Positions 288-63,874 of a stretch of 64,000 nucleotides of DNA are shown here, piece by piece. Positions within the stretch are counted from its first letter, which is position 1, and each line of letters begins with the position of its first letter. A program made the translations under genes and the position numbers. Under the pieces are notes generated by a model that saw only the letters and a list, made by a program, of their open reading frames with translations, ran no database searches and was not told the DNA's origin. Origin of the DNA: Janibacter terrae NBRC 107853 (lineage in GTDB: Bacteria; Actinomycetota; Actinomycetes; Actinomycetales; Dermatophilaceae); NCBI RefSeq assembly GCF_001591405.1, contig NZ_BCUV01000004.1, positions 62,001-126,000 on the forward strand, in the 5' to 3' direction.

Positions 288-763
288 CCACCTGCTGGCG
301 CGACCATGTCGGCCTCCTCGCCCGCGTGGCCCTGGGCGGTGTCCTCGTGTGGGCCGGTGCGCTCAAGCTCGGCAACCCGCTCGGCTCGGCCCGGGCGGTG
401 CAGGCCTACGACGTCCTCCCCTTCGAGGTCGCGAAGTACCTCGGCTACGGCCTCCCGTGGCTCGAGGTCGCGGTCGGCGCGCTGCTCGTCATCGGCCTCC
501 TCACCCGCGCCAACGCGCTCGTGGGAACCCTGCTCATGGCGGCGTTCGTCGTCGGCATCGCGCAGGCCTGGGCCCGCGGGCTGACCATCGACTGCGGCTG
601 CTTCGGCGGCGGTGGCCAGGTGGCCGCCTCCGAGACCAGGTACGGCAGCGAGATCGCCCGGGACCTCGCGCTGGCCCTGTGCGGGCTGTGGCTCGTCGTC
701 CGTCCGGCGTCGACGTGGAGTCTCGACCGGGTCCTCTTCGGGACCACGAAGGAGTTGCAGTGA
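284..763 (+). CDS. MauE/DoxX-family membrane redox protein
   Basis: The product is a 159-residue, four-helix membrane protein of the MauE/DoxX type. MauE-like proteins are thought to pass reducing or oxidising equivalents to partner thioredoxin-fold proteins; the substrate here is unknown. A Cys pair in the motif DCGCFGGGG (near residues 103-110) before the last helix is the hallmark of the redox-active members. The GTG at 284 overlaps the trpA stop by four bases (GTGA), which fixes the start although the frame is open further upstream. Its own stop overlaps the start of a DsbA-like gene in the same way. This pairing supports a joint role in disulfide chemistry outside the membrane. Confidence 0.85.
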   Translation: MTTCWRDHVGLLARVALGGVLVWAGALKLGNPLGSARAVQAYDVLPFEVAKYLGYGLPWLEVAVGALLVIGLLTRANALVGTLLMAAFVVGIAQAWARGLTIDCGCFGGGGQVAASETRYGSEIARDLALALCGLWLVVRPASTWSLDRVLFGTTKELQ

Positions 764-1551
764 GCACCACCGACCGCAAGGCCAAGGCGCAGGCCGCCGC
801 CAGGGGAGCGAAGGGGGGCGCCAACGTCCTCGTCGTCGCCGGCGTGGTGGTCGTCCTCGTCATCGCACTCGTCGTCGGCGGGGCCATCTGGGCCTCGACG
901 CGCGGCGGCGACACGGCGGCGAGCAAGCAGCCCGTCGGTGTCGAGCAGGGGCAGCCGATCGAGCCCTTCAAGGACGCGAAACCCGCGGCCGACGCGCCGG
1001 TCGTCGACGTCTACGAGGACTTCCGGTGCCCGATCTGCCAGGTCTTCGAGCAGGCGATGGGCGACACGATCAACGACCTGGCCAAGGACGGCAGGATCAG
1101 GCTGCGCGTGCACCTCAAGACCGTCATCGACACCAACACCGGCGGTGACTCCTCGGCCGTCGCCGGGTCGAGCGCCGTCTGCGCCGCCGACCAGGGCAGG
1201 TGGGAGGAGTACCACGAGGCGCTCTTCGCCCTGCAGCCCGCGACGGAGACGCAGCAGGGATTCCCCGAGGGCGACTACACCCGCGCGGCGAAGGAGGCCG
1301 GTCTCTCCGGCGACGCCCTCGACGCCTGGCAGGAGTGCACGGACGAGGGCACCTACGTCGACTACGTCAGGAGCGTCGACGACGCGACCGTCAAGGACGG
1401 CATCACCGGGACGCCGGTCATCGCGGTCGGCGGGACCCAGCTCAGCTGGGGGGCCCTGATGGACCAGCAGACGGGCCGGGCGGACACCACGCGCCTGACC
1501 GAGGTCCTCACGAGCGGCGAGGTGCCGCAGGACCTGGTGCAGCAGCGGTGA
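760..1551 (+). CDS. Membrane-anchored DsbA-like thiol oxidoreductase
   Basis: The 263-residue protein has a short basic cytoplasmic N-terminus, one hydrophobic segment (about residues 24-46, rich in Val/Leu/Ile), and an extracytoplasmic thioredoxin-fold domain. The active site is CPIC at residues 90-93, preceded by EDFR as in DsbA/thioredoxin_4 proteins. The cis-proline region is GITGTPVIAVGG near the end. Two further cysteines (in AVCAAD and QECTDE) could form a structural or shuttling disulfide. The GTG at 760 sits in a GTGA overlap with the MauE-like gene, so the two are translationally coupled. Likely role: formation or repair of disulfides in exported proteins, with MauE as electron partner (inference). 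Confidence 0.88.
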   Translation: MSTTDRKAKAQAAARGAKGGANVLVVAGVVVVLVIALVVGGAIWASTRGGDTAASKQPVGVEQGQPIEPFKDAKPAADAPVVDVYEDFRCPICQVFEQAMGDTINDLAKDGRIRLRVHLKTVIDTNTGGDSSAVAGSSAVCAADQGRWEEYHEALFALQPATETQQGFPEGDYTRAAKEAGLSGDALDAWQECTDEGTYVDYVRSVDDATVKDGITGTPVIAVGGTQLSWGALMDQQTGRADTTRLTEVLTSGEVPQDLVQQR

Positions 1552-2420
1552 TCCCGGCCACGCTCCCTTCGCCCACCGTCGGGGTTCTCGCGCTCGGACC
1601 GCTGACGATCCACGCGTACGCGCTGTGCATCCTCGCCGGCATCGGCGTGGCCATCTGGATGGGCGACCGTCGCATGCGCGATCGCGGCGGCGAGGAGGGC
1701 CTCGTCCTCGACGTCGCGATGTGGGCAGTGCCCTTCGGCATCGTCGGTGGCCGGCTCTACCACGTCATCACCACCCCGCAGCCCTACTTCGGCGAGGGCG
1801 GGAGCCCCGTCGACGCGCTGAAGATCTGGCAGGGGGGCCTGGGCATCTGGGGCGCCGTCGCCCTCGGCGCCCTCGGGGCATGGATCGGCACCCGGCGGGA
1901 GGGGGTCTCCTTCCTCTCCTTCGCCGACGCCGTCGCACCCGGCGTGCTCGTCGCCCAGGCGATCGGGCGCTGGGGCAACTGGTTCAACAACGAGATCTAC
2001 GGCGAGCCGACCGACCTGCCCTGGGCCGTACGCATCCACGACTGGGATGCCGGCGCCGGGCAGGCGGTCGTGGACTCCGCGGGTGACCCGGTCGTCCTGG
2101 GCACGTACCACCCGACCTTCCTCTACGAGTCGCTCTTCCTGCTCGTGCTCGCGATCGCCATCCTCGCGCTCGACCGACGGCGCCGGCTCGCGCCGGGCCA
2201 GGTGATGGGCCTGTACGTCGCCGGCTACCCGCTCGGCCGCGTCGTCATCGAGACGATGCGCACCGACGCCGCCAACACCATCCTCGGCCTGCGGGTCAAC
2301 ATCTGGACGAGCCTGGTCGTCTTCGTGCTCGGTGTGGTCATCTACACCGTCTGCGGGCGCCGACGCGCCGCGGACGAAAGAGACGAACATCTCACATCCC
2401 GAGATGCGCCCTCTCACTAG
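1548..2420 (+). CDS. lgt: Prolipoprotein diacylglyceryl transferase
   Basis: Lgt transfers diacylglycerol from phosphatidylglycerol to the lipobox cysteine of prelipoproteins at the membrane, the first step of lipoprotein maturation. The 290-residue protein is of usual length with about seven membrane spans. It carries the family signature GRWGNWFNNEIYGEPTD (about residues 140-156), the upstream QGGLGIWGA segment, and the later YHPTFLYES motif. The GTG at 1548 overlaps the preceding stop by four bases, the third GTGA junction in a row, and there is no other good start. At least two lipoproteins in this window (the livK product and the Rieske protein) would be its substrates. Confidence 0.97.
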   Translation: MIPATLPSPTVGVLALGPLTIHAYALCILAGIGVAIWMGDRRMRDRGGEEGLVLDVAMWAVPFGIVGGRLYHVITTPQPYFGEGGSPVDALKIWQGGLGIWGAVALGALGAWIGTRREGVSFLSFADAVAPGVLVAQAIGRWGNWFNNEIYGEPTDLPWAVRIHDWDAGAGQAVVDSAGDPVVLGTYHPTFLYESLFLLVLAIAILALDRRRRLAPGQVMGLYVAGYPLGRVVIETMRTDAANTILGLRVNIWTSLVVFVLGVVIYTVCGRRRAADERDEHLTSRDAPSH

Positions 2421-2539: not shown

Positions 2540-7103
<4,564 letters not shown>

Positions 7104-8575: not shown

Positions 8576-8615
8576 CGAAGGGGGTGTGACCGCGACGGTG
8601 GTCACACCCCCTTCG
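8576..8615 (+). terminator. Hairpin terminator after gltD, built from a CGAAGGGGG pair
   Basis: A perfect 16-base inverted repeat (CGAAGGGGGTGTGACC at 8576-8591, complement at 8600-8615) encloses an 8-base loop. No long T-run follows, as is common in GC-rich actinobacteria. The outer stem is the dispersed 9-mer found throughout the window. Confidence 0.85.
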
Positions 8616-11650: not shown

Positions 11651-11679
11651 GGGATCCCCCTTCGTCGGTCCGTGGAGCC

Positions 11680-14919: not shown

Positions 14920-15937
14920 CGAGCGCTGCGTCGACGACCTGCGCCCCGGGTCCGACCCGCGCGTCCCGGCCGATGACGCTGCGGATCACGACCGCCCCGG
15001 CTGCGACGGTCGCCCCGGGCAGCACGACGGCCGCCTCGAGGCTGGCCCCGGGCCCGATCGAGGCCCGCGGGTGCACGACCGACCCGCCGGCGACGGTGGA
15101 GCTCGGGTCGACGTCGGCGTCTGCCGCGACGAGGGCCCCGTGGGCGTCTGCTCCGTCGCGCAGCAGCCACGAGGGGCCGTCCCCCACCACGAGATCGCGG
15201 TTGGCCCGCACCAGGGCGGCCGGCGTGCCGACGTCGAGGAAGTAGGCCTCCTCCCGGTACACGTGCAGGGCGTCACGGGCCGCCAGCGCCGGGAAGACCT
15301 CGTGCTCGAGCGAGAGCACACCCGCCGCGAGCACCTCGAGCAGGGCGGCGCGCACGACGTAGGTGCCGGCGTTGACGATCCGTGACGGCGGGTCGGGGGA
15401 CTTCTCGACGAAGGCGCGGACGCGACGGCCCTCGGTGAGCACGCTGCCGTACGGACGGGCATCGGGCACCTCGCGGACGTGGACCGAGCCGAGGACCTCC
15501 GAGGGGGCTGTGCGCAGGGAGGCGACCTGCGCCGCCAGGTCGTGCCCGGTGAGCAGGTCCCCGTTGAGGACGACGACCTCGTCGGCCCCCGGCAGCGCCC
15601 GCAGCGCCCCGCGCAGGCCGCCGCCCGTGCCCCGGGCGGTCTCCTCGACGACGGTGGTGAGGTGCACCCCCTTCGCCCGGAGGGCACGGGTCAGGTCGAT
15701 GAAGTCGTCCGCGCGGTACGACGTCGCGAGGACCACACGGTCCACCCCGACCGCGGACAGGCACGCGACCTGGTGCTCGACGAGCGGGTGGAGACCGACA
15801 GGCAGCAGAGGCTTGGGCAGGTCGCGGGTCAGCGGATCCATCCGCCGGCCGAGGCCACCGGCGAGGACGACCGCGTCGAGACGGGCTACGACGGGTCCTC
15901 CCCGCGGGAGATCTGCTGCAGCCGGGGAGCCAGCCAC
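14897..15937 (-). CDS. Sugar-1-phosphate nucleotidyltransferase with C-terminal left-handed helix
   Basis: The protein (346 residues from the GTG at 15937) begins with the nucleotide-binding signature AVVLAGGLGRRMDPLT and the KPLLPVG loop, continues with VVVLNGDLLTG (metal-binding Asp) and VEKSPDPPSRIVNAG, and ends in hexapeptide repeats (HPRASIGPGASLEAAVVLPG). This layout matches mannose-1-phosphate guanylyltransferases and related enzymes that make GDP- or NDP-sugars. With the heptose cassette at 36.9-39.1 kb, it could instead activate heptose-1-phosphate, but HddC enzymes are usually shorter and lack the helix, so I leave the substrate open. It overlaps the acyltransferase gene by 52 bases; ATG 15852 would cut away the binding loop. 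Confidence 0.82.
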   Translation of the reverse strand: MAGSPAAADLPRGGPVVARLDAVVLAGGLGRRMDPLTRDLPKPLLPVGLHPLVEHQVACLSAVGVDRVVLATSYRADDFIDLTRALRAKGVHLTTVVEETARGTGGGLRGALRALPGADEVVVLNGDLLTGHDLAAQVASLRTAPSEVLGSVHVREVPDARPYGSVLTEGRRVRAFVEKSPDPPSRIVNAGTYVVRAALLEVLAAGVLSLEHEVFPALAARDALHVYREEAYFLDVGTPAALVRANRDLVVGDGPSWLLRDGADAHGALVAADADVDPSSTVAGGSVVHPRASIGPGASLEAAVVLPGATVAAGAVVIRSVIGRDARVGPGAQVVDAALGTGGSAD

Positions 15938-28824: not shown

Positions 28825-28864
28825 CGAAGGGGGCGTCCGCTCGCTCGAGCGGACGCCCCCTTCG
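28825..28864. terminator. Hairpin terminator built from a CGAAGGGGG pair
   Basis: CGAAGGGGGCGTCCGCT (28825-28841) is perfectly complementary to 28848-28864, giving an 18-base stem with a tiny loop. It lies between convergent genes and can serve both strands. Confidence 0.88.
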
Positions 28865-38596: not shown

Positions 38597-39144
38597 CCGC
38601 GGCGCCCTGGTGGTTCGGCCCCGGGACGCTGACCGCGACCGGCGAGGGGACCCCCTTCGACCTCGTCCTGCTCGACCGGGACGGGACGCTCAACGTCCGG
38701 GTGCCCGACGGCTACGTCACCCGGCCGGACGAGCTCCAGCTCCTGCCCGGGGCGTCCGAGGCGGTCGCGGCGCTCACGGCCGCGGGCTGCCGCACGGTCG
38801 TCGTCACCAACCAGCGGGGCATCGCCCGGGGCCTCATGGACCGGACGGACCTGCTGGCGGTCCACGCCCGCCTGCGGGAGCTGCTCGCGGCCGACGGTGG
38901 ACGCATCGACGCGATCGCGGTGTGCCCCCACGAGCGGGGGGCCTGCCGCTGCCGCAAGCCGCTGGACGGTCTCCTCGTCGAGGCACTGCGCCGGGCACCG
39001 TGGGCGGACCCCGCCCGGTGCGTCGTGGTCGGGGACATGCCGAGCGACCTCGAGCCAGCCATCGGGCTCGGGATGCGGGCGGAGCGGGTCGGCCCTCCGG
39101 GACCCGACGCCGGGGCCGTCGTGGCCAGGATCCTCGCGACATGA
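38593..39144 (+). CDS. gmhB: Heptose bisphosphate phosphatase (HAD family), probable CTG start
   Basis: GmhB removes the 7-phosphate of heptose bisphosphate. The protein has the HAD motifs LLDRDGTLN (nucleophile Asp and acid Asp), VVVTNQRGIARG, and VVGDMPSDLEPA, plus the zinc-binding CPHERGACRCRKP loop that defines GmhB and histidinol phosphatases. The start is odd. No ATG, GTG or TTG lies close to the conserved core. CTG at 38593 forms a CTGA overlap with the gmhA stop and has CAGGA at a good distance upstream, giving 183 residues. GTG 38557, 36 bases earlier, is the alternative but has no ribosome site. Confidence 0.88.
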   Translation: MTAAPWWFGPGTLTATGEGTPFDLVLLDRDGTLNVRVPDGYVTRPDELQLLPGASEAVAALTAAGCRTVVVTNQRGIARGLMDRTDLLAVHARLRELLAADGGRIDAIAVCPHERGACRCRKPLDGLLVEALRRAPWADPARCVVVGDMPSDLEPAIGLGMRAERVGPPGPDAGAVVARILAT

Positions 39145-42877: not shown

Positions 42878-42924
42878 GACGAAGGGGGGCATCGCACCGA
42901 TCCGGTGCGGCGCCCCCCTTCGTC
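42878..42924 (+). terminator. Hairpin terminator after rpsA, CGAAGGGGG pair
   Basis: GACGAAGGGGGG (42878-42889) pairs perfectly with 42913-42924, and the stem continues inward through GCACCG/CGGTGC to about 21 pairs with one mismatch. The -10 box of coaE begins six bases later. Confidence 0.9.
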
Positions 42925-47859: not shown

Positions 47860-47903
47860 GACGAAGGGGGTCGGTCACGCCGCGGTGACCGACCCCCTTC
47901 GTC
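47860..47903. terminator. Hairpin terminator, CGAAGGGGG pair
   Basis: GACGAAGGGGGTCGGTCAC (47860-47878) is perfectly complementary to 47885-47903 with a 6-base loop. It lies between convergent genes and should work in both directions. Confidence 0.92.
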
Positions 47904-47909
47904 ATCTCC

Positions 47910-48794
47910 TCAGACGGGCAGCTCGGTGGCGGGGGTGCGCTGACCCAGGCCGAGGACGAGGATGCTCGCCAGGACCACGAGCGTCATCCCGCCGAGCTGC
48001 ACGGGGTCGAGGCGCTGGCCGAGCACGAGCAACCCGGCGAGCGCCGCCACGGCGGGCTCGAGGCTGAGCAGGATGCCGAAGACCGCGGGCGCGAGCCGTC
48101 GGAGGGCGAAGAGCTCGAGGGAGTAGGGCAGGACGGACGAGAGGACGGCGATGCCCAGCCCCTTGAGCAGCACCTCGGCGTCCCAGGCGCCGGTCCCGTG
48201 CCGGGCGACGTCGAGCAGGCCGAAGGGGAGGACCAGGAGCGTCGCGACGACCATGGCGAGGGCGAGCCCCTCCAGCTTGGGGAAGGCCGCTCCGGTCCGG
48301 CCGGAGAAGACGATGTACCCGGCCCAGCAGGCACCCGCCGCGAGGGCGAGCGCGATGCCCGTGCCCTCGAGCTCGTCGAGGGGGATGCTCAGGGCCCGGG
48401 AGATCAGGACGACCCCGACCCCCGCGGCGCCGACCGCGAGGAGGTCGCGCGGGCGGCGCGAGAGGACGGCAGCGAGCGCCAGGGGCCCGACGAACTCGAT
48501 CGTCACGGCGACGCCGATCGGCAGGTGACCGAGCGAGCCGTAGAAGGCGAAGTTCATCATCCCGAGCGCGGCACCGAAGCACGTGACCGTCGCCCAGTCC
48601 CGGCGGGTGTGGCCGCGCCAGCGCGGCCGGGCGACGAGCAGGAGGATCGCCGTCGCGAAGCCGAGCCGCAGGATGACCGAGCCGGCCGCGCCGATCTCCG
48701 GGACGAGGGTGGCCGCGAGCGCCCCGCCGAACTGCACCGAGAGCACTCCCGCGAGGACGAGGAAGGGCGCTGGGACGGCATCGACACGACTCAC
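47910..48794 (-). CDS. EamA/DMT-superfamily exporter (RhtA-like)
   Basis: The 294-residue protein has ten predicted helices in two EamA repeats. The first holds FGGALAATLVPEIGAAGSVILR and GMMNFAFYGSLGHLPIG followed by VAVTIEFVGPLALA, a pattern seen in the RhtA threonine/homoserine exporter branch; the second contains SSVLPYSLELFALRRL and LLSLEPAVAALAG. It probably exports an amino acid or related metabolite, but the substrate is not shown by sequence. GTG 48794 is preceded by TAGGGT at a six-base distance, so the transcript is likely leaderless. It ends at the shared terminator with the TerC-family gene. Confidence 0.85.
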   Translation of the reverse strand: MSRVDAVPAPFLVLAGVLSVQFGGALAATLVPEIGAAGSVILRLGFATAILLLVARPRWRGHTRRDWATVTCFGAALGMMNFAFYGSLGHLPIGVAVTIEFVGPLALAAVLSRRPRDLLAVGAAGVGVVLISRALSIPLDELEGTGIALALAAGACWAGYIVFSGRTGAAFPKLEGLALAMVVATLLVLPFGLLDVARHGTGAWDAEVLLKGLGIAVLSSVLPYSLELFALRRLAPAVFGILLSLEPAVAALAGLLVLGQRLDPVQLGGMTLVVLASILVLGLGQRTPATELPV

Positions 48795-50596: not shown

Positions 50597-52449
50597 GAGA
50601 TCGCTCCTTCAACGGGGTGCACGGGGGTCGCTGTGTCGTCCGTCCTGGGGTGCTCGCCACGGGCCGCGGCGGCGTCGGCATCACGCAGCGCGTAGGCGGC
50701 GCCGATCAGGGCGAGGTGGCTGAAGGCCTGCGGGAAGTTGCCCGCCTGCCGCCGGCCCCTGACGTCGTACTCCTCGGCGACGAGACCGACGTCGTTGAGC
50801 AACCCGCACAGGCGGGCCATGAGGGCGTGCCCCTTGTCGAGCTGCCCGGTGAGGGCGTAGGCGCTCACCAGCCACCAGGAGCAGGCGAGGAAGGGGTGCT
50901 CGTCACCGGCGAGGCCGTCGACGCCCGACTCCGTGCGGTAGCGCAGGAGGTACCCGTCGCGCAGGAGGTCGCGCTCGACGGCGGCGATCGTCCCGAGGAC
51001 CCGCGGGTCGTCCGGGGGCAGGAACCCGACCATCGGGATGAGCAGCAGCGAGGCGTCGACCTCGGTGGTGTCGTAGTGCTGGGTGAAGCTCTGCCGGTCC
51101 TCGTCCCACCCGTGCTCGAGCACGTCCGCGCGCACCCGCTCGCGCAGGTCGCGCCAGGTCTCGACCTCCCCTTCGTACCCGTGGAGCTCGACCGCCCGGA
51201 TGGCGCGGTCGAAGGCGGCCCACACCATCACCCGCGAGTGGGTGAAGTGGCGCAGCGGTCCGCGGATCTCCCACAGGCCGTTGTCCGCGTCCTGCCAGTG
51301 CGTGGCGAGGTTGTTGACGAGGGCGCGCTGGACGGCCCACGACTGGGGCGACTCGGTCAGGCCCTGGGCGCGGGCGTCCTCGAGCGCGATCATCACCTCG
51401 CCGAGGACATCGGTCTGCTTCTGGTCGACGGCACCGTTGCCGATGCGCACGGGACGGCTGCCCGCGTACCCGGGGAGGTGGTCGAGCTCGCGCTCGGGCA
51501 GCTCCCGCCCGCCGTCGACCGCGTACATGATCTGCATGTCCTCCGGGTCGCCGGCGATCGCGCGCACGAGCCAGTCCCGCCACAGCTTGACCGCGCCGAC
51601 GTAGCCCGACTTGAGCAGCGCCTCGAGGGTGAGCGAGGCGTCGCGCAGCCAGCAGTAGCGGTAGTCCCAGTTGCGCTCGCCGCCGAAGTCCTCGGGCAGG
51701 CTCGTGGTGACCGCTGCGACGATGCCGCCCCGGCGCGTGTCGGTGAGCAGGCGCAGGGTGAGCAGCGAGCGCACGACCTCGTCCTGGTACGGCCCCTCGT
51801 AGGTGCAGCGGGCACCCCACTGCGCCGAGCGCTGGTACGTCGCCTCGATGCGTGAGCGGATGTCGAGCGGCGGGGGGATCGGCTTGTAGGAGGCGAACCA
51901 CGTCGTGGAGAAGTTGTAGTGCTCGCCCGCGCGCACGGTCCACCGGTCGCGGTGGTGGTCGCCCTCGGGCACGGGCAGCCGGGAGCCGCGCAGGACGAGC
52001 ATGTCGTTGCCGGCGATGGCGGTGATGACCTCGCGGTCCTGCTCGTGGCCGGGGGAGTGCGCCACCCACGGGCGGATCCGGCCGTAGCCGAAGCGCACGA
52101 CCCACTCCTGGCGCATCTCGACCTCGCCCTCGAGGCCCTCGACGACGCGGACGAGGTCCGCGCGCCCGTCGCCGAGGGGCATGAGATCGGTCACCTTGAC
52201 CGCCCCGGTGGCGGTGCGGTGGGTGGTCTCGAGGATGAAGGAGTCGCCGCGGTAGGCGCGGGTCGTCGTCGCCTCGCCGACCGGGCCGATGAGCCACCGG
52301 CCGTGCTCGGGGGTGCCGAGCAGCGCGGTGAAGCACGACGAGGAGTCGAAGCGCGGCAGGCAGAGCCAGTCGACCGAGCCCCCCTTGGACACCAGGGCGG
52401 CGGTCTCGGTGTCGCCGATGGCGGCATAGTCCTCGATCGGTGTCGTCAT
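50593..52449 (-). CDS. Glycoside hydrolase family 15 (trehalase/glucoamylase-like)
   Basis: The 618-residue cytoplasmic protein has the GH15 layout: an N-terminal beta-sandwich beginning [17 protein letters not shown] with [12 protein letters not shown], then an (alpha/alpha)6 barrel. The motif [18 protein letters not shown], the first catalytic Glu in DNGLWEIRG, and the second in LVAEEYD are present. Actinobacterial proteins of this kind include trehalases and oligosaccharide glucosidases. There is no signal peptide, so an internal sugar such as trehalose is likely (inference). TAGCCT lies six bases before the ATG on the minus strand, so it too has a leaderless-type start. It is followed by the MBL gene with a four-base overlap. 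Confidence 0.92.
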
Positions 52450-52499
52450 CCGCTCAGGCTAGGCCCTGCTTCGGCCCGTCCGGCGAAGGGGGGAGAGCG

Positions 52500-52529: not shown

Positions 52530-55500
52530 GTGACTGTTGCCAAGGCCGCCGGCTCCCGCCTGCACGACCGGATCGTCGTCCAGGGGGCCCGCGAGCACAA
52601 CCTCAAGAACATCCATGTCGACATCCCACGCGACTCCCTGGTGGTCTTCACCGGGCTGTCGGGGTCGGGCAAGTCGTCGCTGGCCTTCGACACGATCTTC
52701 GCCGAGGGGCAGCGCCGGTACGTCGAGTCCCTGTCGGCCTACGCGCGGCAGTTCCTCGGCCAGATGGACAAGCCGGACGTCGACTTCATCGAGGGGCTGT
52801 CGCCCGCGGTGTCCATCGACCAGAAGTCGACGAACCGCAACCCCCGATCGACCGTGGGCACGATCACCGAGGTCCACGACTACCTGCGTCTGCTCTTCGC
52901 CCGCGTCGGTCGGCCGCACTGCCCGGTCTGCGGCGAGGCGATCACCCGTCAGAGCCCGCAGCAGATCGTCGACCGGCTCCTCGAGCTGCCCGAGCGCACC
53001 CGCTTCCAGGTCCTGGCGCCGGTCGTGCGCGCCCGTAAGGGCGAGTTCGTCGACCTCTTCTCCGAGCTGCGGACCAAGGGCTACAGCCGGGCCCGCGTGG
53101 ACGGGGAGGTCGTCTCGCTCGCGGAGCCGCCGACGCTGGAGAAGCAGGTCAAGCACACCATCGACGTCGTCGTCGACCGCCTCGTGGCGAAGGGGGAGGA
53201 GGACCGGGCCGCGAAGCAGCGGGTCACCGACTCCGTGGAGACCGCCCTCGGGCTCGCCGGGGGCGTGCTCGTCATCGACTTCGTCGACCTCGACGAGGAC
53301 GACCCGCAGCGTCAGCGCCGCTACTCCGAGACGATGGCCTGCCCCAACGACCACCCGCTCAACATCGACGAGATCGAGCCGCGGTCCTTCTCCTTCAACT
53401 CCCCCTTCGGCGCCTGCCCGGTCTGCACGGGCCTGGGGACGGAGCTCGAGGTCGACGCGGAGCTCGTCGTCCCCGACGACGACCTGACGCTCGCGGAGGG
53501 GGCCATCGCGCCCTGGGCGCAGGGGACCCAGTCGGCCCAGTACTTCCAGCGCACGATGTCGGCGCTCGGCGACGACCTCGGCTTCGACATGGACACGCCG
53601 TGGCGGGCGCTGCCGAGCCGCGCCCGCGAGGCGCTCCTGCACGGACGCAACCACAAGGTGCACGTCAAGTACCGCAACCGCTTCGGGCGGGAGCGCTCCT
53701 ACAGCACCGGCTTCGAGGGGGTCATCCCCTTCATCAAGCGCCGGCACACCGAGACCGAGTCGGACTGGAGCCGGGAGAAGTACGAGGGGTACATGCGCGA
53801 GATCCCGTGCCCGACGTGCCGGGGGACCCGCCTGAAGCCGGAGTCCCTCGCCGTCCTCGTCGGTGGGCAGAGCATCGCCGACGTCTCCTCGCTCTCGATC
53901 CGCGAGGCGGCCGGGTTCCTCGACACCGTCGACTTCAGCGAGCGTGAGCGGCAGATCGCCGAGCAGGTCATCAAGGAGATCAACGCACGGCTGGGCTTCC
54001 TCCTCGACGTGGGCCTGGAGTACCTCTCCCTCTCGCGGGCCGCGGGCACGCTCTCCGGTGGCGAGGCGCAACGCATCCGGCTGGCCACGCAGATCGGCTC
54101 GGGCCTGGTGGGCGTGCTCTACGTGCTCGACGAGCCGAGCATCGGTCTGCACCAGCGCGACAACCACCGGCTCATCGAGACGCTGACCCGGCTGCGCGAC
54201 CTCGGCAACACACTGATCGTCGTCGAGCACGACGAGGACACCATCGCCGCCTCGGACTGGGTCGTCGACATCGGCCCGGGAGCGGGGGAGCACGGCGGTC
54301 ATGTCGTCCACTCCGGGCCGCTCGCCGACCTGCTGACGAGCGAGCGCTCGGTGACCGGCCGCTACCTCTCCGGCGACCTCGAGATCCCGGTCCCGGCCGT
54401 GCGCCGACCGCAGGACCCCGCGCGCGAGGTCACGGTCAAGGGAGCCAAGGAGCACAACCTCGCCGGCATCGACGTCAGCTTCCCGCTGGGCAACTTCGTC
54501 GCGGTGACGGGCGTGTCCGGGTCCGGCAAGTCGACCCTCGTCAACGACATCCTCTACAACGTCATGGCCAACAAGCTCAACGGCGCCCGCCGGGTGCCGG
54601 GTCGGCACAAGACGGTGACCGGCCTCGAGCACCTCGACAAGGTCGTGCACGTCGATCAGAGCCCCATCGGTCGCACGCCGCGGTCCAACCCGGCGACGTA
54701 CACCGGGGTCTTCGACCACGTCCGCAAGCTCTTCGCCCAGACGAGCGAGGCGAAGGTGCGCGGGTACCAGCCGGGCCGGTTCTCCTTCAACGTCAAGGGC
54801 GGGCGCTGCGACGCGTGCTCCGGTGACGGCACGCTGAAGATCGAGATGAACTTCCTGCCGGACGTCTACGTCCCGTGCGAGGTCTGCCACGGCGCCCGGT
54901 ACAACCGGGAGACCCTCGAGGTGCACTTCAAGGGCAAGAACATCGCCGAGGTCCTCGACATGCCGATCGAGGAGGCCGAGGACTTCTTCGCGGCCGTCCC
55001 GGCGATCGCCCGCCACATGAAGACCCTCAACGCTGTCGGCCTGGGCTACGTGCGCCTCGGGCAGCCGGCGACGACCCTCTCGGGCGGTGAGGCGCAGCGG
55101 GTCAAGCTCGCGGCCGAGCTGCAGAAACGGTCCAACGGGCGCACGATCTACGTGCTCGACGAGCCGACGACCGGCCTGCACTTCGAGGACATCCGCAAGC
55201 TGCTGCTCGTGCTCCAGGGCCTGGTCGACAAGGGCAACTCGGTCCTGGTCATCGAGCACAACCTCGACGTGATCAAGTGCGCCGACTACGTCGTCGACAT
55301 GGGTCCCGAGGGCGGGTCGGGCGGTGGCCAGGTGGTCGCGAGCGGCAGCCCGGAGCAGGTCGCAGCCGTGCCACGCTCCTTCACGGGGCAGTTCCTCGCC
55401 CCGGTGCTCGCCTCCTCGTCGGTCTCGCCCGTCGTCGGCGAGCTCGTCGTCGACGAGGCCGACCCGGCCCCCGCGGCGAAGGGAGCGGCCACGAAGAAGT

Positions 55501-55646
55501 CGGCCTCCGCGAAGAAGACCGCGGCCCGCAGGACCGCGGCCACGAAGGGGACGAAGGTCACCGCGACGAAGAAGACCGCGCCGGCCAAGAAGTCCGTCTC
55601 GAGTGCGGCGAGCGCGGCGGCCCGCCGTGCGAAGAAGGCGGGCTGA
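52530..55646 (+). CDS. uvrA: Excinuclease ABC subunit A with a basic C-terminal tail
   Basis: UvrA finds DNA damage and loads UvrB. The 1038-residue protein has two ABC ATPase modules (Walker [13 protein letters not shown] near residue 44 and [12 protein letters not shown] in the second half; signatures [12 protein letters not shown] and [12 protein letters not shown]), and zinc sites [15 protein letters not shown], and CDACSGDG with CEVCHGARY. After about residue 980 comes a tail of about 58 residues made of Lys/Ala/Thr repeats ([15 protein letters not shown]), with 17 basic and no acidic residues, like histone H1 tails. Usual UvrA proteins stop near residue 970. GTG 52530 is fixed by TAAGGT seven bases upstream and the PafBC element. 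Confidence 0.97.
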
Positions 55647-57302: not shown

Positions 57303-58966
57303 TTGGCTGCCTCCAGCTCGTTGATGACCACTGTCTCGGCCAGGTCCTCGTCGTCCTCGTGGAACTCCAGCTGGCGACGCTTGCTGGCGACGAGGCCCTC
57401 GGGACGCACGCGCATCATGACGACGAGCACGAGCCCGAACATCAGGAGGCGGTAGTCCTCGAGGAAGCGCAGCTTCTCCGGGAGGAACTTCAGGATCGCG
57501 GCGCCGATGAGCACACCGCCGACCGTGCCCATGCCGCCGAGGACGACGGCAGCGAGCAGGAAGGCGGACTCGAGGAAGATGTAGCTGTCCGGGGAGACCG
57601 CCTGGTCCATGTGGGCCTTGACCGTGCCGGCCATGCCGGCCAGCGAGGCGCCCCCGGCGAAGGCGAGCAGCTTGAGCCCGAAGACGTTGACGCCCATGGC
57701 CTCCGCAGCGCGCTCGTCCTCACGGATCGCAACCCACCCGCGCCCGATGCGGGAGTTGTTCAGGTGGGTGAAGACGACGATCACGAAGACGATGAGCGCG
57801 ATGAGCACGAAGTAGTAGTTGCCCGCACGCGGGATCTCGATACCGAGGATGGTGTGCGTGTCGCCGAAGTTGAATCCGAAGAAGTCCAGGTCCGGGATGG
57901 CGTTGATGCCGTTGGACCCCCGCGTGATGAGCGGGCCGGAGGTGCCGTCGAGGTTGAACATCGCCAGACGGAAGATCTCACCGAAGGCGAGCGTGACGAT
58001 GGCGAGGTAGTCGCCGGAGACGCGCAGGGTCGGCGAGCCGATGATCAGACCCAGGATGCTCGAGACGAGACCGCCGATGAGCATCACGACGAGGAAGGGG
58101 GGCTTCCACCCGATCGTCGCGAAGGCGGAGTACGACATCGTGGCCCCGACGTAGGCACCGGCGCCGAGGAAGGCGATGTAGCCGAGGTCGAGGAGGCCGG
58201 CGAGGCCGACGACGATGTTGAGGCCGAGCGCGGTCGCCGCGAAGATCAGCACATTGCCGGCGATCGTCAGGTTGCCCTCGGAGCCGCCCTGGGTGAAGGG
58301 GAAGGCGAGCGCCACCGCGAAGGTCGCGAGCGTGAAGACGCGCCGGTGGCGCAGGGTCACGCCACCGATCCACGCCGCCATGTTCGAGCGCGTGAAGGTG
58401 AGCGTCACGCCGATGAGCATGCCGACGAGCAGGACGAGCACCCACGGCTCCTGCTGCTTCAGGGCGTACTGCGCCGTGTAGAGCGCGATGCCGAGCAGGG
58501 CCGCGATGGTCAGGATCTCCACCCAGGCGGGCAGCGCGAGCGCGGCCGGGTCGAGGACCTTGCGCTCGGGCGTCATGAAGCCGGCGACGGCGACGAGCAG
58601 CCCGCCGACGACGGCGACCCACACCCCTTCGTTGGCGTTGATCAGGCCACCGGACTCGAAGGAGATGGCTCCCAGCGAGACCACGGAGAAGATCGCGCCG
58701 GTGACGCCGATGGTGCGCAGCCCGCGGCCGGCGTCGATGTGCTCGGCCCACCGACGCAGGGGACCCAGCACGACGAGCGCCAGCACGAGCGAGACGAGGC
58801 CGATGACGATCGCGTAGACCTGCAGGGTGACCGGCCAGAAGCGGACGGAGATGTCACCGAAGAGGGGCTCGAAGCTCCACGACAGGAAACCGGAGACGAT
58901 GAGCAGGACGGAGCCGGCGACCGCGAGCGGCGCTGCGAGACGGGGGTTCTGGGACGGCGACTTCAT
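57299..58966 (-). CDS. livM: Branched-chain amino-acid ABC permease with long N-terminal extension
   Basis: LivM forms the membrane channel with LivH. The canonical permease domain occupies about residues 235-530 (LGLNIVVGLAGLLDLGYIAF; SGDYLAIVTLAFGEIFR; IREDERAAEAMGVNVFGLKL, the contact loop with the ATPases). It is preceded by about 230 residues with roughly six further helices and no family motif that I recognise (SFEPLFGDISVRFWP; GGLINANEGVWVAVVGG). The total of 555 residues is well above the usual 300-420. A C-terminal acidic tail (FHEDDEDLAETV) also occurs. ATG 58966 overlaps the livH stop; the frame is open further upstream inside livH. Confidence 0.92.
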   Translation of the reverse strand: MKSPSQNPRLAAPLAVAGSVLLIVSGFLSWSFEPLFGDISVRFWPVTLQVYAIVIGLVSLVLALVVLGPLRRWAEHIDAGRGLRTIGVTGAIFSVVSLGAISFESGGLINANEGVWVAVVGGLLVAVAGFMTPERKVLDPAALALPAWVEILTIAALLGIALYTAQYALKQQEPWVLVLLVGMLIGVTLTFTRSNMAAWIGGVTLRHRRVFTLATFAVALAFPFTQGGSEGNLTIAGNVLIFAATALGLNIVVGLAGLLDLGYIAFLGAGAYVGATMSYSAFATIGWKPPFLVVMLIGGLVSSILGLIIGSPTLRVSGDYLAIVTLAFGEIFRLAMFNLDGTSGPLITRGSNGINAIPDLDFFGFNFGDTHTILGIEIPRAGNYYFVLIALIVFVIVVFTHLNNSRIGRGWVAIREDERAAEAMGVNVFGLKLLAFAGGASLAGMAGTVKAHMDQAVSPDSYIFLESAFLLAAVVLGGMGTVGGVLIGAAILKFLPEKLRFLEDYRLLMFGLVLVVMMRVRPEGLVASKRRQLEFHEDDEDLAETVVINELEAAK

Positions 58967-59922
58967 GCGCGGTCCACCACCTTTGCACCCATGATGCCTT
59001 GGGGTCGGAAGACGAGGACGAGGATGAGGATCGAGAAGGCCCAGATGTCCTTCCACGGCGATCCGCCGGGCAGGTACTGGATGGCCATCGACTCGAGGAC
59101 ACCCAGGACGAGGCCACCGACGACCGCGCCCTGGATGTTGCCGATGCCCCCGAGCACGGCAGCGGTGAAGGCCTTGAGGCCGTAGATGAAGCCCATCTTG
59201 AAGTTGATGTTGGTCGTCTGCAGGCCGTACGCGACTCCGGCGACGGCGGCGAGCGCGGCGCCGACGGCGAAGGCCGTGACGATCATCCGGTCGACGTTGA
59301 TGCCCATGAGGCGCGCGGTGTCGGGGTCCTGCGAGACGGCCTGCATCGCGCGGCCCGTGCGCGTGCGGTTGATGTAGTACCAGAGCCCGACGGCGCTGAT
59401 GACGAGGCAGGCGATCGTGAACAGCGCCGGCCGCTGCAGCGTGACGCTGCCGAGGGTGAAGGCCTCACCGGAGATGCCGTCGACCTGGGGGAAGACGACC
59501 TTCTGCTTCGCGGAGGGGAAGTCGAAGGGGTTGACCGAGGAGATGAAGAGCGTCGGGTCGTTGTACCCGACGCGGACGAGCTCCTGCAGGAAGACCGAGA
59601 TACCGATGGCCGTGATGAGCGGTGCCAGACGGGGCGCGTTGCGCAGCGGCCGGTAGGCCACGCGCTCCATGAGCACCGCCACGAGGACCGAGGCCGCGAC
59701 GGCGCCGAGGAGGATGAGCGGCAGGGTCCACAGGGCCGTCTGCCCGGGGAAGAGGACCAGCGAGGTCGAGAGCGCGCCGAAGGCGCCGATCATGAAGATC
59801 TCGCCGTGCGCGAAGTTGATGAGCTGGATGATGCCGTAGACGACGGTGTAGCCGACGGCGATCAGGGCGTACAGGGACCCGATGGTCAGACCGTTGACGA
59901 TCTGCTGGGCGACTTGTTCCAC
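58963..59922 (-). CDS. livH: Branched-chain amino-acid ABC permease
   Basis: The 319-residue permease has the LivH start VNGLTIGSLYALIAVGYTVVYG followed by INFAHGEIFMIGAF, the ATPase-contact loop TRTGRAMQAVSQDPDTARLMG and the ending GIMGAKVVDRA. About eight helices are predicted. The GTG at 59922 is preceded by CCAGGAGGACAC, the same 15-base start region as livK, which suggests matched strong initiation. A 150-base gap with a hairpin separates it from livK, so the permease and ATPase genes may be transcribed less than the binding-protein gene. Confidence 0.95.
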   Translation of the reverse strand: MEQVAQQIVNGLTIGSLYALIAVGYTVVYGIIQLINFAHGEIFMIGAFGALSTSLVLFPGQTALWTLPLILLGAVAASVLVAVLMERVAYRPLRNAPRLAPLITAIGISVFLQELVRVGYNDPTLFISSVNPFDFPSAKQKVVFPQVDGISGEAFTLGSVTLQRPALFTIACLVISAVGLWYYINRTRTGRAMQAVSQDPDTARLMGINVDRMIVTAFAVGAALAAVAGVAYGLQTTNINFKMGFIYGLKAFTAAVLGGIGNIQGAVVGGLVLGVLESMAIQYLPGGSPWKDIWAFSILILVLVFRPQGIMGAKVVDRA

Positions 59923-59998
59923 GTGTCCTCCTGGGGCGTGGACGCAGGTCGTGCGTCCACCACGTGCGTCGAGGGGATGTGACGAAGGGGGATCTCAG

Positions 59999-61305: not shown

Positions 61306-61378
61306 GTGTCCTCCTGGTGCTGGGATGTGCGGCCGTGCGGCCTCGGCGCGCAACTCTGGTGCTGCGGGCTGTGCAGGG

Positions 61379-61415: not shown

Positions 61416-61522
61416 GCAAGACCGTGACTCGCTCGTTACCAAGTGGTCATCACCGTGGTGACCCACGGACCCCGGTGGCAGGATCGGGGGCCGGACCGAT
61501 CCCCCTTCGGAAGGGCTCTGAG

Positions 61523-61918
61523 ATGAGCACGACGCGACGCACCGCCATGTCCCTCGCCGCGACCGGTGGTGCCGGTCTGCTCGCCGCCTGCGGGGGTGAC
61601 GGCTCCGCGGCCGGCGAGACCGGCGGAGGCGGCACGGGTCGCGTGAGCATCCCGGTCGCCGACGTGCCCGAAGGGGGAGGCGTCGTGCGTGACGACGTCG
61701 TCGTCACCCAGCCGAGCGCCGGCGAGTTCAGGGCCTTCGACGCCAGGTGCCCGCACCAGGGTTGCGCGGTGGCCGGCGTGACCGCCGAGGCCATCGAGTG
61801 CCCGTGCCACGGCAGCCGCTTCGACCCGGCGACCGGGGCGGTGACGCAGGGGCCCGCGACGACCGGCCTCACGGCGAGGACGGCGACCGTCGAGGGCGCT
61901 GACGTGACCGTCTCATAG
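61523..61918 (+). CDS. Small Rieske [2Fe-2S] lipoprotein
   Basis: The 131-residue protein has a lipoprotein signal with twin arginines (TTRRTAM) and lipobox LAAC (Cys23), a Gly-rich linker, and a Rieske domain with both cluster motifs CPHQGC and CPCHGSRF, and the final PATTGLTARTATVEG segment. Folded cluster proteins are usually exported by the Tat route, which the RR pair allows. It is too small and isolated to be the cytochrome bc1 subunit; an electron carrier at the outer face of the membrane is likely. ATG 61523 follows GGAAGGG by seven bases. Its stop codon TAG is part of the uvrC -10 box. Confidence 0.88.
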   Translation: MSTTRRTAMSLAATGGAGLLAACGGDGSAAGETGGGGTGRVSIPVADVPEGGGVVRDDVVVTQPSAGEFRAFDARCPHQGCAVAGVTAEAIECPCHGSRFDPATGAVTQGPATTGLTARTATVEGADVTVS

Positions 61919-61921
61919 GCT
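61916..61921 (+). promoter_or_regulatory. Leaderless promoter of uvrC, overlapping the Rieske stop
   Basis: TAGGCT lies six bases before the GTG of uvrC and begins with the TAG stop codon of the preceding gene. The bases at the PafBC position (CTGACGTGA) do not match well, so uvrC is probably not under that control. Confidence 0.55.
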
Positions 61922-61927
61922 CGGGGG

Positions 61928-63874
61928 GTGGCAGATCCGGCGACCTACCGACCCGCCCCGGGGTCCATCCCGACCGATCCGGGCGTGTACCGCTTCCTCG
62001 ACGAGCACGGGCGGGTCATCTACGTCGGCAAGGCCAAGTCCCTGCGCTCGCGGCTCTCCTCGTACTTCCAGGACATCTCCGCGCTGCACCCGCGCACCTC
62101 GCGGATGGTGCGCACCGGCGCCCGGGTCGAGTGGACCGTCGTCGCGACCGAGGTCGAGGCGCTCCAGCTCGAGTACGCGTGGATCAAGGAGTTCGACCCC
62201 CGCTTCAACGTCAAGTACCGCGACGACAAGTCCTACCCCTACCTCGCGGTGACCCTCGGCGAGGAGTTCCCCCGCGCGCAGGTGCTGCGCGGCGCCAAGC
62301 GCAAGGGCACGCGCTACTTCGGCCCGTACACCCATGCCTGGGCGATCCGCGAGACGCTCGACCTGCTCCTGCGGGTCTTCCCCGTGCGCACGTGCAGCAA
62401 GGGCGTCTTCAAGCGGGCCGAGCAGTCCGGCCGCCCCTGCCTCCTCGGGTACATCGACAAGTGCTCGGCGCCGTGCGTCGGCCGCGTCACCCCGGAGGAG
62501 CACCGCGCGCTCGCGCTGGAGCTGTGCGACTTCCTCGCCGGGGACACCGCCCGGTTCGTGCGGCGGCTCGAGCGGCGGATGAAGGAGGCGGCCGCCGAGC
62601 TCGACTTCGAGCAGGCCGCCCGCCTGCGTGACGACGTCGCGGCGCTCACCAAGGCCCTCGAGAAGTCCGCGGTCGTCCTGCCTGACGGCACCGACGCCGA
62701 CGTCTTCGCCCTGGCCGACGACGAGCTCGAGGTCGCCATCCAGGTCTTCCACGTCCGTGGCGGCCGCATCCGGGGCCAGCGGGGCTGGGTCGCGGAGAAG
62801 GCGGCCGAGGACCTCCCGGAGGTCGTCGAGCACCTCCTCCAGCAGGTCTACGGCGGCGAAGGGGGAGAGGCCGTGCCCCGTGAGGTGCTCGTCCCCGTCG
62901 TGCCCCCGGACGCCGCGCAGGTGGCGGCCTGGCTGACCGAGCGTCGTGGCAGCTCCGTGGACCTGCGTGTCCCGCAGCGCGGCGACAAGCGCGCACTCAT
63001 GGAGACCGTGGCCCGCAACGCCGAGCAGTCCCTCGCCCGGCACAAGGTGGCCCGGGCCGGTGACCTCACGGCGCGCAGCCAGGCCCTGCAGGAGCTGCAG
63101 GAGGCGCTCGGCCTCGACGACGCGCCCCTGCGCATCGAGGGCTACGACATCAGCCACGTGCAGGGCAGCGACGTCGTGGGCTCGATGGTCGTCTTCGAGG
63201 ACGGGTTGGTGCGCAAGGGGGAGTACCGGCGCTTCATCGTCCGGGGTGACGTCGACGGACGCACCGATGACACCGCGGCCATGCACGAGGTCCTCTCGCG
63301 CCGCTTCGCCCGCCACCTCAAGGACCGCGAGCGCGACGCGACCGATCCCGAGACCGGTGAGGTGCGCCGCTTCGCCTACCCGCCCAACCTCGTCGTCGTC
63401 GACGGCGGGGCCCCGCAGGTCGCGGCCGCCCAGCAGGTGCTCGACGAGCTCGGCGTCGACGACGTCGCCGTCGTCGGCCTGGCCAAGCGGCTCGAGGAGG
63501 TCTGGGTCCCCGGGGACGAGCATCCCGTGATCCTCGCCCGCACGAGCGAGGCCCTCTACCTCCTGCAACGCCTGCGCGACGAGGCGCACCGCTTCGCCAA
63601 CACCTTCCACCGTGAGCGGCGCAGCAAGTCGATGACACGCAGCGCGCTCGACGGCATCCCCGGTCTCGGCGAGGCCCGCCGGGCCGCCCTGCTCGCCAGG
63701 TTCGGCTCCGTCAAGCGGATCCGGGCGGCGTCGGCGGAGGAGCTGGCGACCACATCCGGGATCGGACCTGCCCTCGCGGAGCGGATTGCGGCAGAGTTGG
63801 CCGGGACGACGACCACGCCGGCCGTGAACCTCACCACCGGTGAGGTGCTCGACGACGCAGGAGGAACCCAGTGA
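61928..63874 (+). CDS. uvrC: Excinuclease ABC subunit C
   Basis: UvrC makes both cuts beside damaged DNA. The 648-residue protein has the N-terminal GIY-YIG nuclease ([19 protein letters not shown]; later [18 protein letters not shown]), a four-Cys-like segment ([15 protein letters not shown]), a UVR helix that binds UvrB ([18 protein letters not shown]), an RNase H-like 5' nuclease ([29 protein letters not shown]) and two helix-hairpin-helix motifs at the end ([29 protein letters not shown]). GTG 61928 is six bases after TAGGCT. Its stop overlaps the start of rapZ by four bases, the usual uvrC-rapZ order. Confidence 0.97.

What the first reader, a model, noticed from the sequence alone, without database searches (positions are those of the whole stretch)
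418..62864. Strongly over-represented 9-mer CGAAGGGGG, arranged like a DNA-uptake or genome-marking sequence
By hand count the window has 35 copies of CGAAGGGGG (47 of the 8-mer CGAAGGGG), against about 2 (5) expected for a 72 % GC sequence. Copies occur in both orientations, inside reading frames of unrelated proteins and in gaps, and five times as closely spaced inverted pairs, four of them forming terminators. Single genic copies plus inverted pairs in terminators is the layout known for Neisseria DUS and Pasteurellaceae USS uptake sequences. I know of no such family described for actinobacteria. Other options are a Chi-like, FtsK-orienting or nucleoid-protein site.
Basis: partly seen in the sequence, partly recalled or inferred. 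Interest (0 to 1): 0.82.

Follow-up and report, generated by a model that had tools for sequence, protein, structure and literature searches.

The report
DNA self-marking words in Janibacter family
A Gram-positive bacterium (Janibacter) and its relatives carry a short DNA word scattered about once every two kilobases through their own chromosomes, with different lineages using different words, much like the DNA passwords by which Neisseria and Haemophilus recognise their own DNA; whether it serves DNA uptake here is untested.

Summary
The window (a Janibacter) has 47 CGAAGGGG and 35 CGAAGGGGG; its genome has 1,797 CGAAGGGGG against 22 for the reversed word. All 19 Janibacter genomes scanned are loaded (797-1,939 copies); the other 167 genomes of the family hold at most 80. 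Most other genera of the family carry GTATGCCG, or a one-letter variant (GTACGCCG, GGATGCCG), at similar density: dialects. The two words tested outside the family are at background there. Copies are strand-balanced without replication-arm polarity, five times commoner in genes than after synonymous shuffling, paired as hairpins beyond chance, kept between species two to three times as often as neighbouring words, and missing from transposon-rich islands. This is the layout of Neisseria DUS and Pasteurellaceae USS, and speaks against Chi, FtsK, HIP1 or RNA signals. ComEC, DprA and Tad genes are present, but also in genomes without a known word, and no receptor was found, so uptake is inferred, not shown. 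Best reading: an uptake-signal dialect system in Gram-positive bacteria. No such report was seen in the papers searched.

The parts
8576..8615 (.). inverted pair of CGAAGGGG (+ at 8576, - at 8608), hairpin after the gene ending at 8561
   Evidence: -43.8 kcal/mol, z -9.0
28825..28864 (.). inverted pair (+ 28825, - 28857), hairpin between genes
   Evidence: z -8.7
32749..32773 (.). inverted pair (+ 32749, - 32766), short hairpin; scored genic by a crude gene caller
   Evidence: z -6.1
42880..42922 (.). inverted pair (+ 42880, - 42915), hairpin after the S1-domain gene ending at 42859
   Evidence: z -8.9
47862..47901 (.). inverted pair (+ 47862, - 47894), hairpin between the TerC gene end (47852) and a convergent gene; word-bearing hairpins stand at the same place in 4 of 7 other Janibacter loci, with a different inner stem, one arm in 2 more, none in J. 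melonis
418..425 (-). CGAAGGGG copy (8-mer only)
809..817 (+). CGAAGGGGG copy
5452..5460 (+). CGAAGGGGG copy
6868..6876 (-). CGAAGGGGG copy
11656..11664 (-). CGAAGGGGG copy
15667..15675 (-). CGAAGGGGG copy
17407..17414 (+). CGAAGGGG copy (8-mer only)
19359..19367 (-). CGAAGGGGG copy
22260..22268 (-). CGAAGGGGG copy
22938..22946 (+). CGAAGGGGG copy
24574..24581 (-). CGAAGGGG copy (8-mer only)
26901..26909 (+). CGAAGGGGG copy
27600..27608 (-). CGAAGGGGG copy
30546..30554 (+). CGAAGGGGG copy
33907..33914 (-). CGAAGGGG copy (8-mer only)
35472..35480 (-). CGAAGGGGG copy
36686..36694 (+). CGAAGGGGG copy
37165..37173 (-). CGAAGGGGG copy
38651..38659 (-). CGAAGGGGG copy
39706..39713 (-). CGAAGGGG copy (8-mer only)
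40737..40745 (+). CGAAGGGGG copy
40788..40795 (+). CGAAGGGG copy (8-mer only)
42277..42284 (-). CGAAGGGG copy (8-mer only)
43532..43540 (-). CGAAGGGGG copy
43794..43802 (+). CGAAGGGGG copy
48221..48228 (+). CGAAGGGG copy (8-mer only)
51168..51175 (-). CGAAGGGG copy (8-mer only)
52484..52492 (+). CGAAGGGGG copy
53188..53196 (+). CGAAGGGGG copy
53401..53409 (-). CGAAGGGGG copy
55543..55550 (+). CGAAGGGG copy (8-mer only)
58624..58631 (-). CGAAGGGG copy (8-mer only)
59523..59530 (+). CGAAGGGG copy (8-mer only)
59983..59991 (+). CGAAGGGGG copy
61501..61509 (-). CGAAGGGGG copy
61669..61677 (+). CGAAGGGGG copy
62857..62865 (+). CGAAGGGGG copy

Best explanation
The word is the Janibacter dialect of a family-wide DNA self-recognition word that works like the DNA uptake sequences of Neisseriaceae and Pasteurellaceae. 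Inferred mechanism: a cell-surface DNA receptor, most likely a minor pilin or other part of the Tad/Flp pilus, binds double-stranded DNA carrying the word; the pilus draws it in, ComEA and ComEC pass one strand inwards, and DprA/RecA recombine it. Because word-bearing fragments of kin are taken up preferentially, alleles that hold the word spread by biased recombination, and the word accumulates at tolerant sites in genes and as hairpin pairs at gene ends. When the receptor's specificity shifts, the genome is slowly rewritten, giving dialects. Shown: over-representation, strand balance, dialects nested in a gene tree, conservation of sites, absence from the mobile islands examined, presence of ComEC/DprA/Tad genes in this genome and ComEA in a congener. 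Inferred: that the word is bound by an uptake receptor, that these bacteria transform naturally, and which protein reads it.
For: 1,797 copies against 22 for the reversed word. GTATGCCG exceeds 500 copies in at least one genome of 30 of the 51 other genera of the family (counted by eye; e.g. 2,376/2,348 in G099); at most 180 copies in 299 genomes of 18 other families of the order. One-letter dialects: GGATGCCG (G178 1,977/1,972; two g9 genomes; g15, of which G036 and G037 hold both words) and GTACGCCG (three g34 genomes, G014, G015, G012, and G083, whose congeners carry GTATGCCG). Janibacter is one clade nested among GTATGCCG bearers in a TerC tree. No replication-arm polarity in two complete genomes that start at dnaA. 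Hairpin-oriented pairs are 15 of 24 and 26 of 36 close pairs in two Janibacter samples; intergenic excess 1.6- to 2.3-fold. Sites intact between species 48 of 88 against 0.29 for neighbouring words (Janibacter) and 36 of 46 against 0.23 (Knoellia). Long word-free gaps examined are low-GC islands with transposases, resolvase and TraG. 245 genic copies against 50 after synonymous shuffling. Tad ATPase, ComEC and DprA in this genome, ComEA in a congener. M. luteus, another actinobacterium, transforms through Flp/Tad pili (PMC8467076, passages).
Against: ComEC is in 180 of 186 family genomes, including those without any known word; ComEA and the Tad locus were seen in both kinds, DprA in 12 of 12 tested: nothing found separates loaded from unloaded genomes. 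No type IV pilus marker (PilM) in Janibacter, so the known receptor type, a T4P minor pilin, is not expected. Natural transformation in Janibacter or kin was not seen in the papers searched. CGAAGGGG shares no clear core with the GTATGCCG set, unlike Neisseria dialects. In GTATGCCG genomes close pairs are not mainly hairpin-oriented (9 and 8 of 17), and the reversed control word is itself raised in many of them (e.g. 822/838 against 279/299 in G005, 578/564 against 230/223 in G041). Two genomes inside loaded genera (G008, G113) carry none of the known words and remain unexplained.
Confidence: 0.62

Rival explanations
1. A chromosome-organising or nucleoid-associated protein binds the word throughout the chromosome, and its binding specificity has shifted between genera.
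For: Even spread, both strands, absence from mobile islands and conservation of sites would fit a dsDNA-binding protein as well.
Against: I recall nothing of this kind that uses an 8-11 bp asymmetric word at 1 per 1-2 kb with clade-wide dialects. The hairpin pairs at gene ends and a mixture of two dialects in one genome are known marks of uptake sequences (PMC3630211, passages).
Confidence: 0.17
2. A Chi-like site that regulates a RecBCD/AddAB/AdnAB-type nuclease, or an FtsK-orienting site.
For: Density and G-richness resemble Chi and KOPS; Chi words also differ between lineages (recalled; PMC8022716 seen in a listing with the start of its abstract only).
Against: No arm polarity: 94/81 and 86/98 copies in the two halves of G064 (Fisher p 0.21; leading-strand share 0.53, against 0.54 for GGGG) and 65/63 and 69/75 in G078 (p 0.72). 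No overdispersion between stretches (chi-square 18.6 on 20; in G078 6.2 on 20, more even than chance). Hairpin pairs have no role in such systems that I recall.
Confidence: 0.07
3. An orphan methyltransferase or other DNA-modification target, as suggested for cyanobacterial HIP1.
For: HIP1 is likewise an abundant octamer of one clade with an unclear role (PMC4390886, listing and start of abstract).
Against: HIP1 is palindromic; the four words here are not, and the 11-base consensus with a preferred G at -2 and R at -1 is long for a methylase (recalled). Hairpin pairs are unexplained.
Confidence: 0.06
4. A by-product of composition, codon use or dispersed terminator/REP-like repeats.
For: Some copies form hairpins at gene ends.
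Against: Reversed word 22 against 1,797 copies; synonymous shuffling 50 against 245; 255 of 320 copies lie in called genes and there is no long shared flank; most genera of the family lack it.
Confidence: 0.02

Closest known systems
Neisseriaceae DNA uptake sequence (DUS) and its dialects
   Same: Short asymmetric word at about 1 per 1-2 kb on both strands, in genes and as inverted pairs at gene ends; near-identical dialects that follow the phylogeny; two dialects together in some genomes; some family members without any; atypical distribution in mobile elements (here; DUS: PMC3630211 passages, and PMC7371117 abstract).
   Different: Monoderm high-GC Actinomycetota; none of the four words holds the DUS core CTG; Tad/Flp locus and no PilM in Janibacter; no ComP known; function untested. 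GTATGCCGT shares ATGCCGT with the Neisseria AT-DUS (its letters recalled), which I take as coincidence.
Pasteurellaceae uptake signal sequence (USS)
   Same: 9-mer, paired copies forming inverted repeats, two dialects (PMC12616744, passages).
   Different: No GCGG core; no downstream AT-rich segments.
Chi sites / KOPS / AIMS
   Same: Abundant octamers (recalled).
   Different: Those are polar with respect to replication (recalled); this word is not.
HIP1 of cyanobacteria
   Same: Abundant octamer of one clade.
   Different: Palindromic, and linked to orphan methylases (PMC4390886, listing and start of abstract).
Micrococcus luteus competence (ComEA/ComEC plus Flp/Tad pili)
   Same: Likely the same machinery: the same gene types are present here.
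   Different: The words 'uptake sequence', 'sequence-specific' and 'specificity' do not occur in the main text of the one M. luteus paper searched; whether its genome has such a word was not tested by name.

Membership tests
DNA uptake sequence systems in general | Word grossly over-represented genome-wide | tested here: met
   1,797 against 22 for the reversed word; 245 against 50 after synonymous shuffling
DNA uptake sequence systems in general | No strand or replication-arm bias | tested here: met
   905/892; Fisher p 0.21 and 0.72 by arm in two relatives
DNA uptake sequence systems in general | Inverted pairs forming hairpins near gene ends | tested here: met
   15 of 24 and 26 of 36 close pairs are hairpin-oriented in the two Janibacter samples (in the GTATGCCG genome G078 9 of 17 one way, 8 of 17 the other), folds
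DNA uptake sequence systems in general | Dialects that follow phylogeny | tested here: met
   the tree (one gene) covers CGAAGGGG and GTATGCCG only
DNA uptake sequence systems in general | Depleted in recently acquired DNA | tested here: met
   word-free gaps in L180, L173 and L171 hold transposases, resolvase and TraG at 65-69% GC against 71.7% (20 of 56 called ORFs scanned); the gap in L183 (73% GC) was not examined
DNA uptake sequence systems in general | Competence machinery present | tested here: met
   ComEC, Tad ATPase, DprA in this genome; ComEA in congener G064
DNA uptake sequence systems in general | Word loss goes with loss of competence genes | tested here: inconclusive
   ComEC in 180 of 186 genomes, loaded or not
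DNA uptake sequence systems in general | Word raises DNA binding, uptake and transformation | not testable with these tools
   needs bench work
Neisseriaceae DUS | Core CTG | tested here: not met
   absent from CGAAGGGGG, GTATGCCG, GTACGCCG and GGATGCCG; core as in PMC3630211
Neisseriaceae DUS | ComP minor pilin of a type IV pilus | tested here: inconclusive
   PilM in 7 of 186 genomes, none of them Janibacter; ComP itself was not searched
Pasteurellaceae USS | Core GCGG | tested here: not met
   absent from all four words; core as in PMC12616744
Chi / KOPS | Polarity along replication arms | tested here: not met
HIP1 | Palindromic octamer | tested here: not met
   sequence itself

The most novel reading that the evidence does not exclude
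The family Dermatophilaceae/Intrasporangiaceae has its own DNA-uptake-signal system, the first in Gram-positive bacteria, with at least four dialects (GTATGCCG, GTACGCCG, GGATGCCG, and the unrelated CGAAGGGGG of Janibacter), read by a Tad/Flp-type competence pilus rather than a type IV pilus. Such self-recognition words would then have arisen at least three times independently, and the family would hold snapshots of dialect switching in progress (G036 and G037 with two words; G083 switched relative to its congeners).
Probability: 0.58. Interest if true: 0.93.

Novelty: new variant of a known kind. Interest (0 to 1): 0.87.

Why it matters
In the passages read here, uptake sequences are described for two Gram-negative families only, and why they evolve is a long-standing question. 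A third, independent origin in monoderm high-GC bacteria, with many sequenced genera, near-identical dialects, natural switches and mixed genomes, would let receptor-word co-evolution be tested by comparison, would suggest frequent natural transformation in these actinobacteria, and would give a handle for genetic manipulation of Janibacter, Knoellia, Tetrasphaera and kin.

Tried and rejected
ComEC, T2SSE ATPases, ComEA/comEC and Tad loci and DprA (12 genomes) as genes separating loaded from unloaded genomes: present in both kinds. Dialect tracking by proteins of the Tad loci: crude gene calls with many antisense ORFs, no conclusion. Competence loss in G083 as the reason for its missing GTATGCCG: dropped, because G083 carries GTACGCCG instead. 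Another word in G008, G113, g46, g53 and other unloaded genera: samples of 3.9-20 kb from 19 genomes (a 578-base piece, L131, was left out) and 60 kb pools of g46 and g53 gave no convincing further dialect besides GGATGCCG (g51) and GTACGCCG (g34); a few other enriched words (poly-G in L119, an AT-rich repeat in L123, TAGGAGGG and TCGCTACG in L132) were not followed up. Two g46 genomes, G153 and G158, have a roughly four-fold excess of GGATGCCG over its control. An order-5 Markov model is contaminated by the word itself (231 observed, 68 expected), so shuffled codons and the reversed word were preferred. RNA-level action: no strong bias between coding and template strand in genes (own 117 same, 138 opposite; G064 130 and 125; G078 116 and 99). 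Kribbia GGCCGCGGC looks like a low-complexity GC word, not a dialect. Paper searches for the words themselves listed unrelated papers (20 of 501 and 10 of 643 listed). Limits of the counts: GTACGCCG was counted in 34 chosen genomes only, and GGATGCCG and GTACGCCG were not counted outside the family. In the tree the word status comes from one locus per genome by density cut-offs; one Janibacter row (L011, 3.6 kb) scored as having no word, and the cut-off for GTATGCCG is low (2.3 per 10 kb).

Full report
OBSERVATION. The 9-mer count is exact: 35 CGAAGGGGG and 47 CGAAGGGG in the window, 2.2 expected for the 9-mer under an order-4 Markov model of the window. In the whole genome the 9-mer occurs 905 times forward and 892 reverse; read backwards it occurs 22 times. 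In a 464 kb sample (window plus 20 stretches of 20 kb) 320 copies of the 8-mer give an extended consensus G-R-CGAAGGGG-G: G at -2 in 78%, A or G at -1 in 78%, G at +8 in 72% and C there in 1%. In 326 called genes 245 copies stand against a mean of 50 (maximum 60) in 20 synonymous shuffles, which themselves keep the codons that the word recruits; for G064 it is 234 against 42, for GTATGCCG in G078 197 against 21.

WHOSE GENOME. A TerC protein from the window has its best matches in Janibacter (87-90% identity to J. anophelis, J. indicus and J. hoylei), and the TerC tree places the window inside Janibacter. The window carries ordinary chromosomal genes: glutamate synthase, pyruvate kinase, DNA polymerase I, an S1-domain protein, a UvrB-type protein, TerC and a GH15 enzyme.

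TAXONOMIC SPREAD AND DIALECTS. In 186 genomes of the family, all 16 of genus g1 (797-1,860 copies) and all 3 of g35 (1,317-1,939) are loaded; the other 167 hold at most 80. g35 is the J. melonis group: contig 1 of G092 has the same length, 1,298,592, as the J. melonis record. Among 272 genomes of the order outside the family the word has at most 101 copies, and the reversed word is of similar order. The named relatives led to a second word: loci of Knoellia, Pedococcus, Nostocoides/Tetrasphaera, Humibacillus xanthopallidus and others carry GTATGCCG 9-23 times per locus of 13-21 kb, except one Pedococcus locus with 5, and CGAAGGGG 0-4 times. Family-wide, GTATGCCG reaches 4,724 copies and exceeds 500 in at least one genome of 30 of the 51 genera other than g1 and g35 (counted by eye), with the two strands nearly equal; it is at background in all 19 Janibacter (7-41 copies). 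Its reversed control is itself raised in many loaded genomes, so the excess over control ranges from about 2.5-fold (G041) to about 50-fold (G112). In 299 genomes of 18 other families it has at most 180 copies. Two one-letter variants are words of their own: GGATGCCG in g51, g9 and g15 (for example G178, 1,977/1,972 against 140/149 for the reversed word) and GTACGCCG in three g34 genomes, G014, G015 and G012 and, strikingly, in G083, whose congeners G084 and G085 carry GTATGCCG (34 chosen genomes). In genus g15, G034 and G035 carry mostly GGATGCCG, while G036 and G037 hold about 2,100-2,200 GGATGCCG and about 1,200 GTATGCCG: a mixture, as described for Simonsiella in Neisseriaceae (PMC3630211, passages read). 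In a maximum-likelihood TerC tree of 81 rows the Janibacter word forms one clade (apart from L011, a 3.6 kb locus without the word) nested among GTATGCCG bearers, with Kribbia, which has neither, next to it; label changes needed were fewer than in every one of 200 shuffles. Some genera have none of the four words as a clear excess.

ANATOMY. Copies are near-randomly spaced (coefficient of variation about 1). 80% lie in called genes in the window's genome (71% in G064, 79% in G078), with an excess between genes: 65 observed and 35 expected, 104 and 46 in G064, 57 and 36 in G078. In genes, coding and template orientation are about equal, so the signal acts as double-stranded DNA, not RNA. Close pairs (under 60 bp) exceed chance (24 against 13, 36 against 19, 17 against 11) and in Janibacter are mostly hairpin-oriented (15 of 24; 26 of 36); in the GTATGCCG genome G078 the two opposed orientations are equal (9 and 8 of 17). 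The five pairs of the window fold with z from -6 to -9, but no T-run follows, so terminator function is not shown. At the end of the TerC gene a word-bearing hairpin stands in the window and in 4 of 7 other Janibacter loci; two more have a single arm and one (J. melonis) has none. The inner stem and loop differ between species while the outer CGAAGGGG stays. In 5 of 6 loci of the Knoellia group a single GTATGCCG lies just after the same gene.

SITES ARE KEPT. Between the window and seven Janibacter loci (82-88% DNA identity) 48 of 88 alignable sites are intact, against 1,339 of 4,588 (0.29) for neighbouring 8-mers and 509 of 1,723 (0.30) for words of equal composition. Between Knoellia sinensis (L018) and five relatives it is 36 of 46, against 523 of 2,304 (0.23) for neighbours and about 0.30 for equal composition; with K. 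locipacati (L020) as reference 39 of 51, against about 0.26 and 0.43. Sites shared between comparisons are not independent; the three single comparisons tested gave p 0.00002 (L018 with L019), 0.003 (window with L009) and 0.06 (window with L010). So the word is maintained by selection or by biased recombination.

NOT POLAR, NOT MOBILE. In two complete genomes whose sequence starts at dnaA, 20 even samples each show no polarity along replication arms: 94/81 and 86/98 for CGAAGGGG in G064, 65/63 and 69/75 for GTATGCCG in G078; the leading-strand share of 0.53 in G064 is that of plain GGGG there (0.54). This is unlike Chi, KOPS or AIMS as I recall them. Four of the five longest word-free gaps in the sample of this genome have 65-69% GC (genome sample 71.7%) and lie in three stretches. 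Of 56 ORFs called in these stretches 20 were scanned: Mutator, ISL3, TniB and Mu-type transposition proteins, an integrase core, a resolvase and a TraG domain are among them, beside metabolic and transport genes. The fourth-longest gap (L183, 73% GC) and the gaps of G064 and G078 were not examined. DUS distributions have been used in the same way to find integrative elements in Neisseria (PMC7371117, abstract).

MACHINERY. ComEC, four Tad-like ATPase matches and DprA are in this genome. The comEA-comEC locus, with ComEA holding SLBB and HHH domains, and a Tad locus with a T2SSE ATPase, a DUF4244 protein (a Flp pilin, as I recall) and TadE were read in Janibacter and relatives. In Micrococcus luteus, Flp/Tad pili and two tad clusters serve transformation (PMC8467076, passages). 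But ComEC, ComEA, DprA and Tad genes also occur in genomes without a known word, and T4P PilM is absent from Janibacter. I could not name a receptor.

JUDGEMENT. The sum of features is the sequence signature of an uptake-sequence system with dialects; I recall no other class of abundant word that shows all of them. By sequence it is neither a DUS nor a USS (no CTG or GCGG core), so the claim is 'works like', not 'is a member'. In the parts of seven paper searches that were listed (20 of 32, 20 of 501, 20 of 287, 10 of 643, 13 of 13, 15 of 38 and 25 of 2,579 hits) I saw no report of such words in actinobacteria; most papers of subscription journals are not held. Passages or abstracts of four papers were read (PMC3630211, PMC8467076, PMC7371117, PMC12616744); all others were seen only in listings.

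Noticed in passing
L019 (Janibacter sp. HTCC2649): This strain named Janibacter groups with Knoellia in the TerC tree and carries GTATGCCG, not CGAAGGGG; the name looks wrong.
   Followed up: partly
window and L165-L184 (G000), L096-L115 (G064): A second dispersed repeat: words such as CCCTAGGGCAATG and CCTAGGGGAATG, 17-19 copies in 464 kb of this genome, probably an imperfect palindrome, and a related CCCTAGGGT repeat in G064; also TCCCTGAGGAG in both. Perhaps REP-like or terminators.
   Followed up: no
L158:9102-11449 (G083): comEC matches in two reading frames in G083, although this genome is loaded with GTACGCCG; sequencing error or recent loss.
   Followed up: no
G008 and G113: Single genomes within GTATGCCG-loaded genera that carry none of the four words as a clear excess; 20 kb samples show no replacement.
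   Followed up: partly
G005, G006, G009, G041 and others: The reversed control word GCCGTATG is itself frequent in many GTATGCCG-loaded genomes (e.g. 279/299 in G005), perhaps because sites of the form GCCGTATGCCG hold both words.
   Followed up: no
L119 (G152): Unusually many runs of eight or more G in 20 kb (42 8-mers against 5.5 expected).
   Followed up: no
L123 (G088): TACTTGTTTT-like repeat, 9-12 copies of its words in 20 kb, AT-rich against a 69% GC background; perhaps an array.
   Followed up: no
L162 (G000 contig 7, 1293001-1313000): Two T2SSE-type ATPase genes about 12 kb apart, seen as such a pair also in G057 and G065 in a capped list; 7 words in this 20 kb stretch.
   Followed up: no
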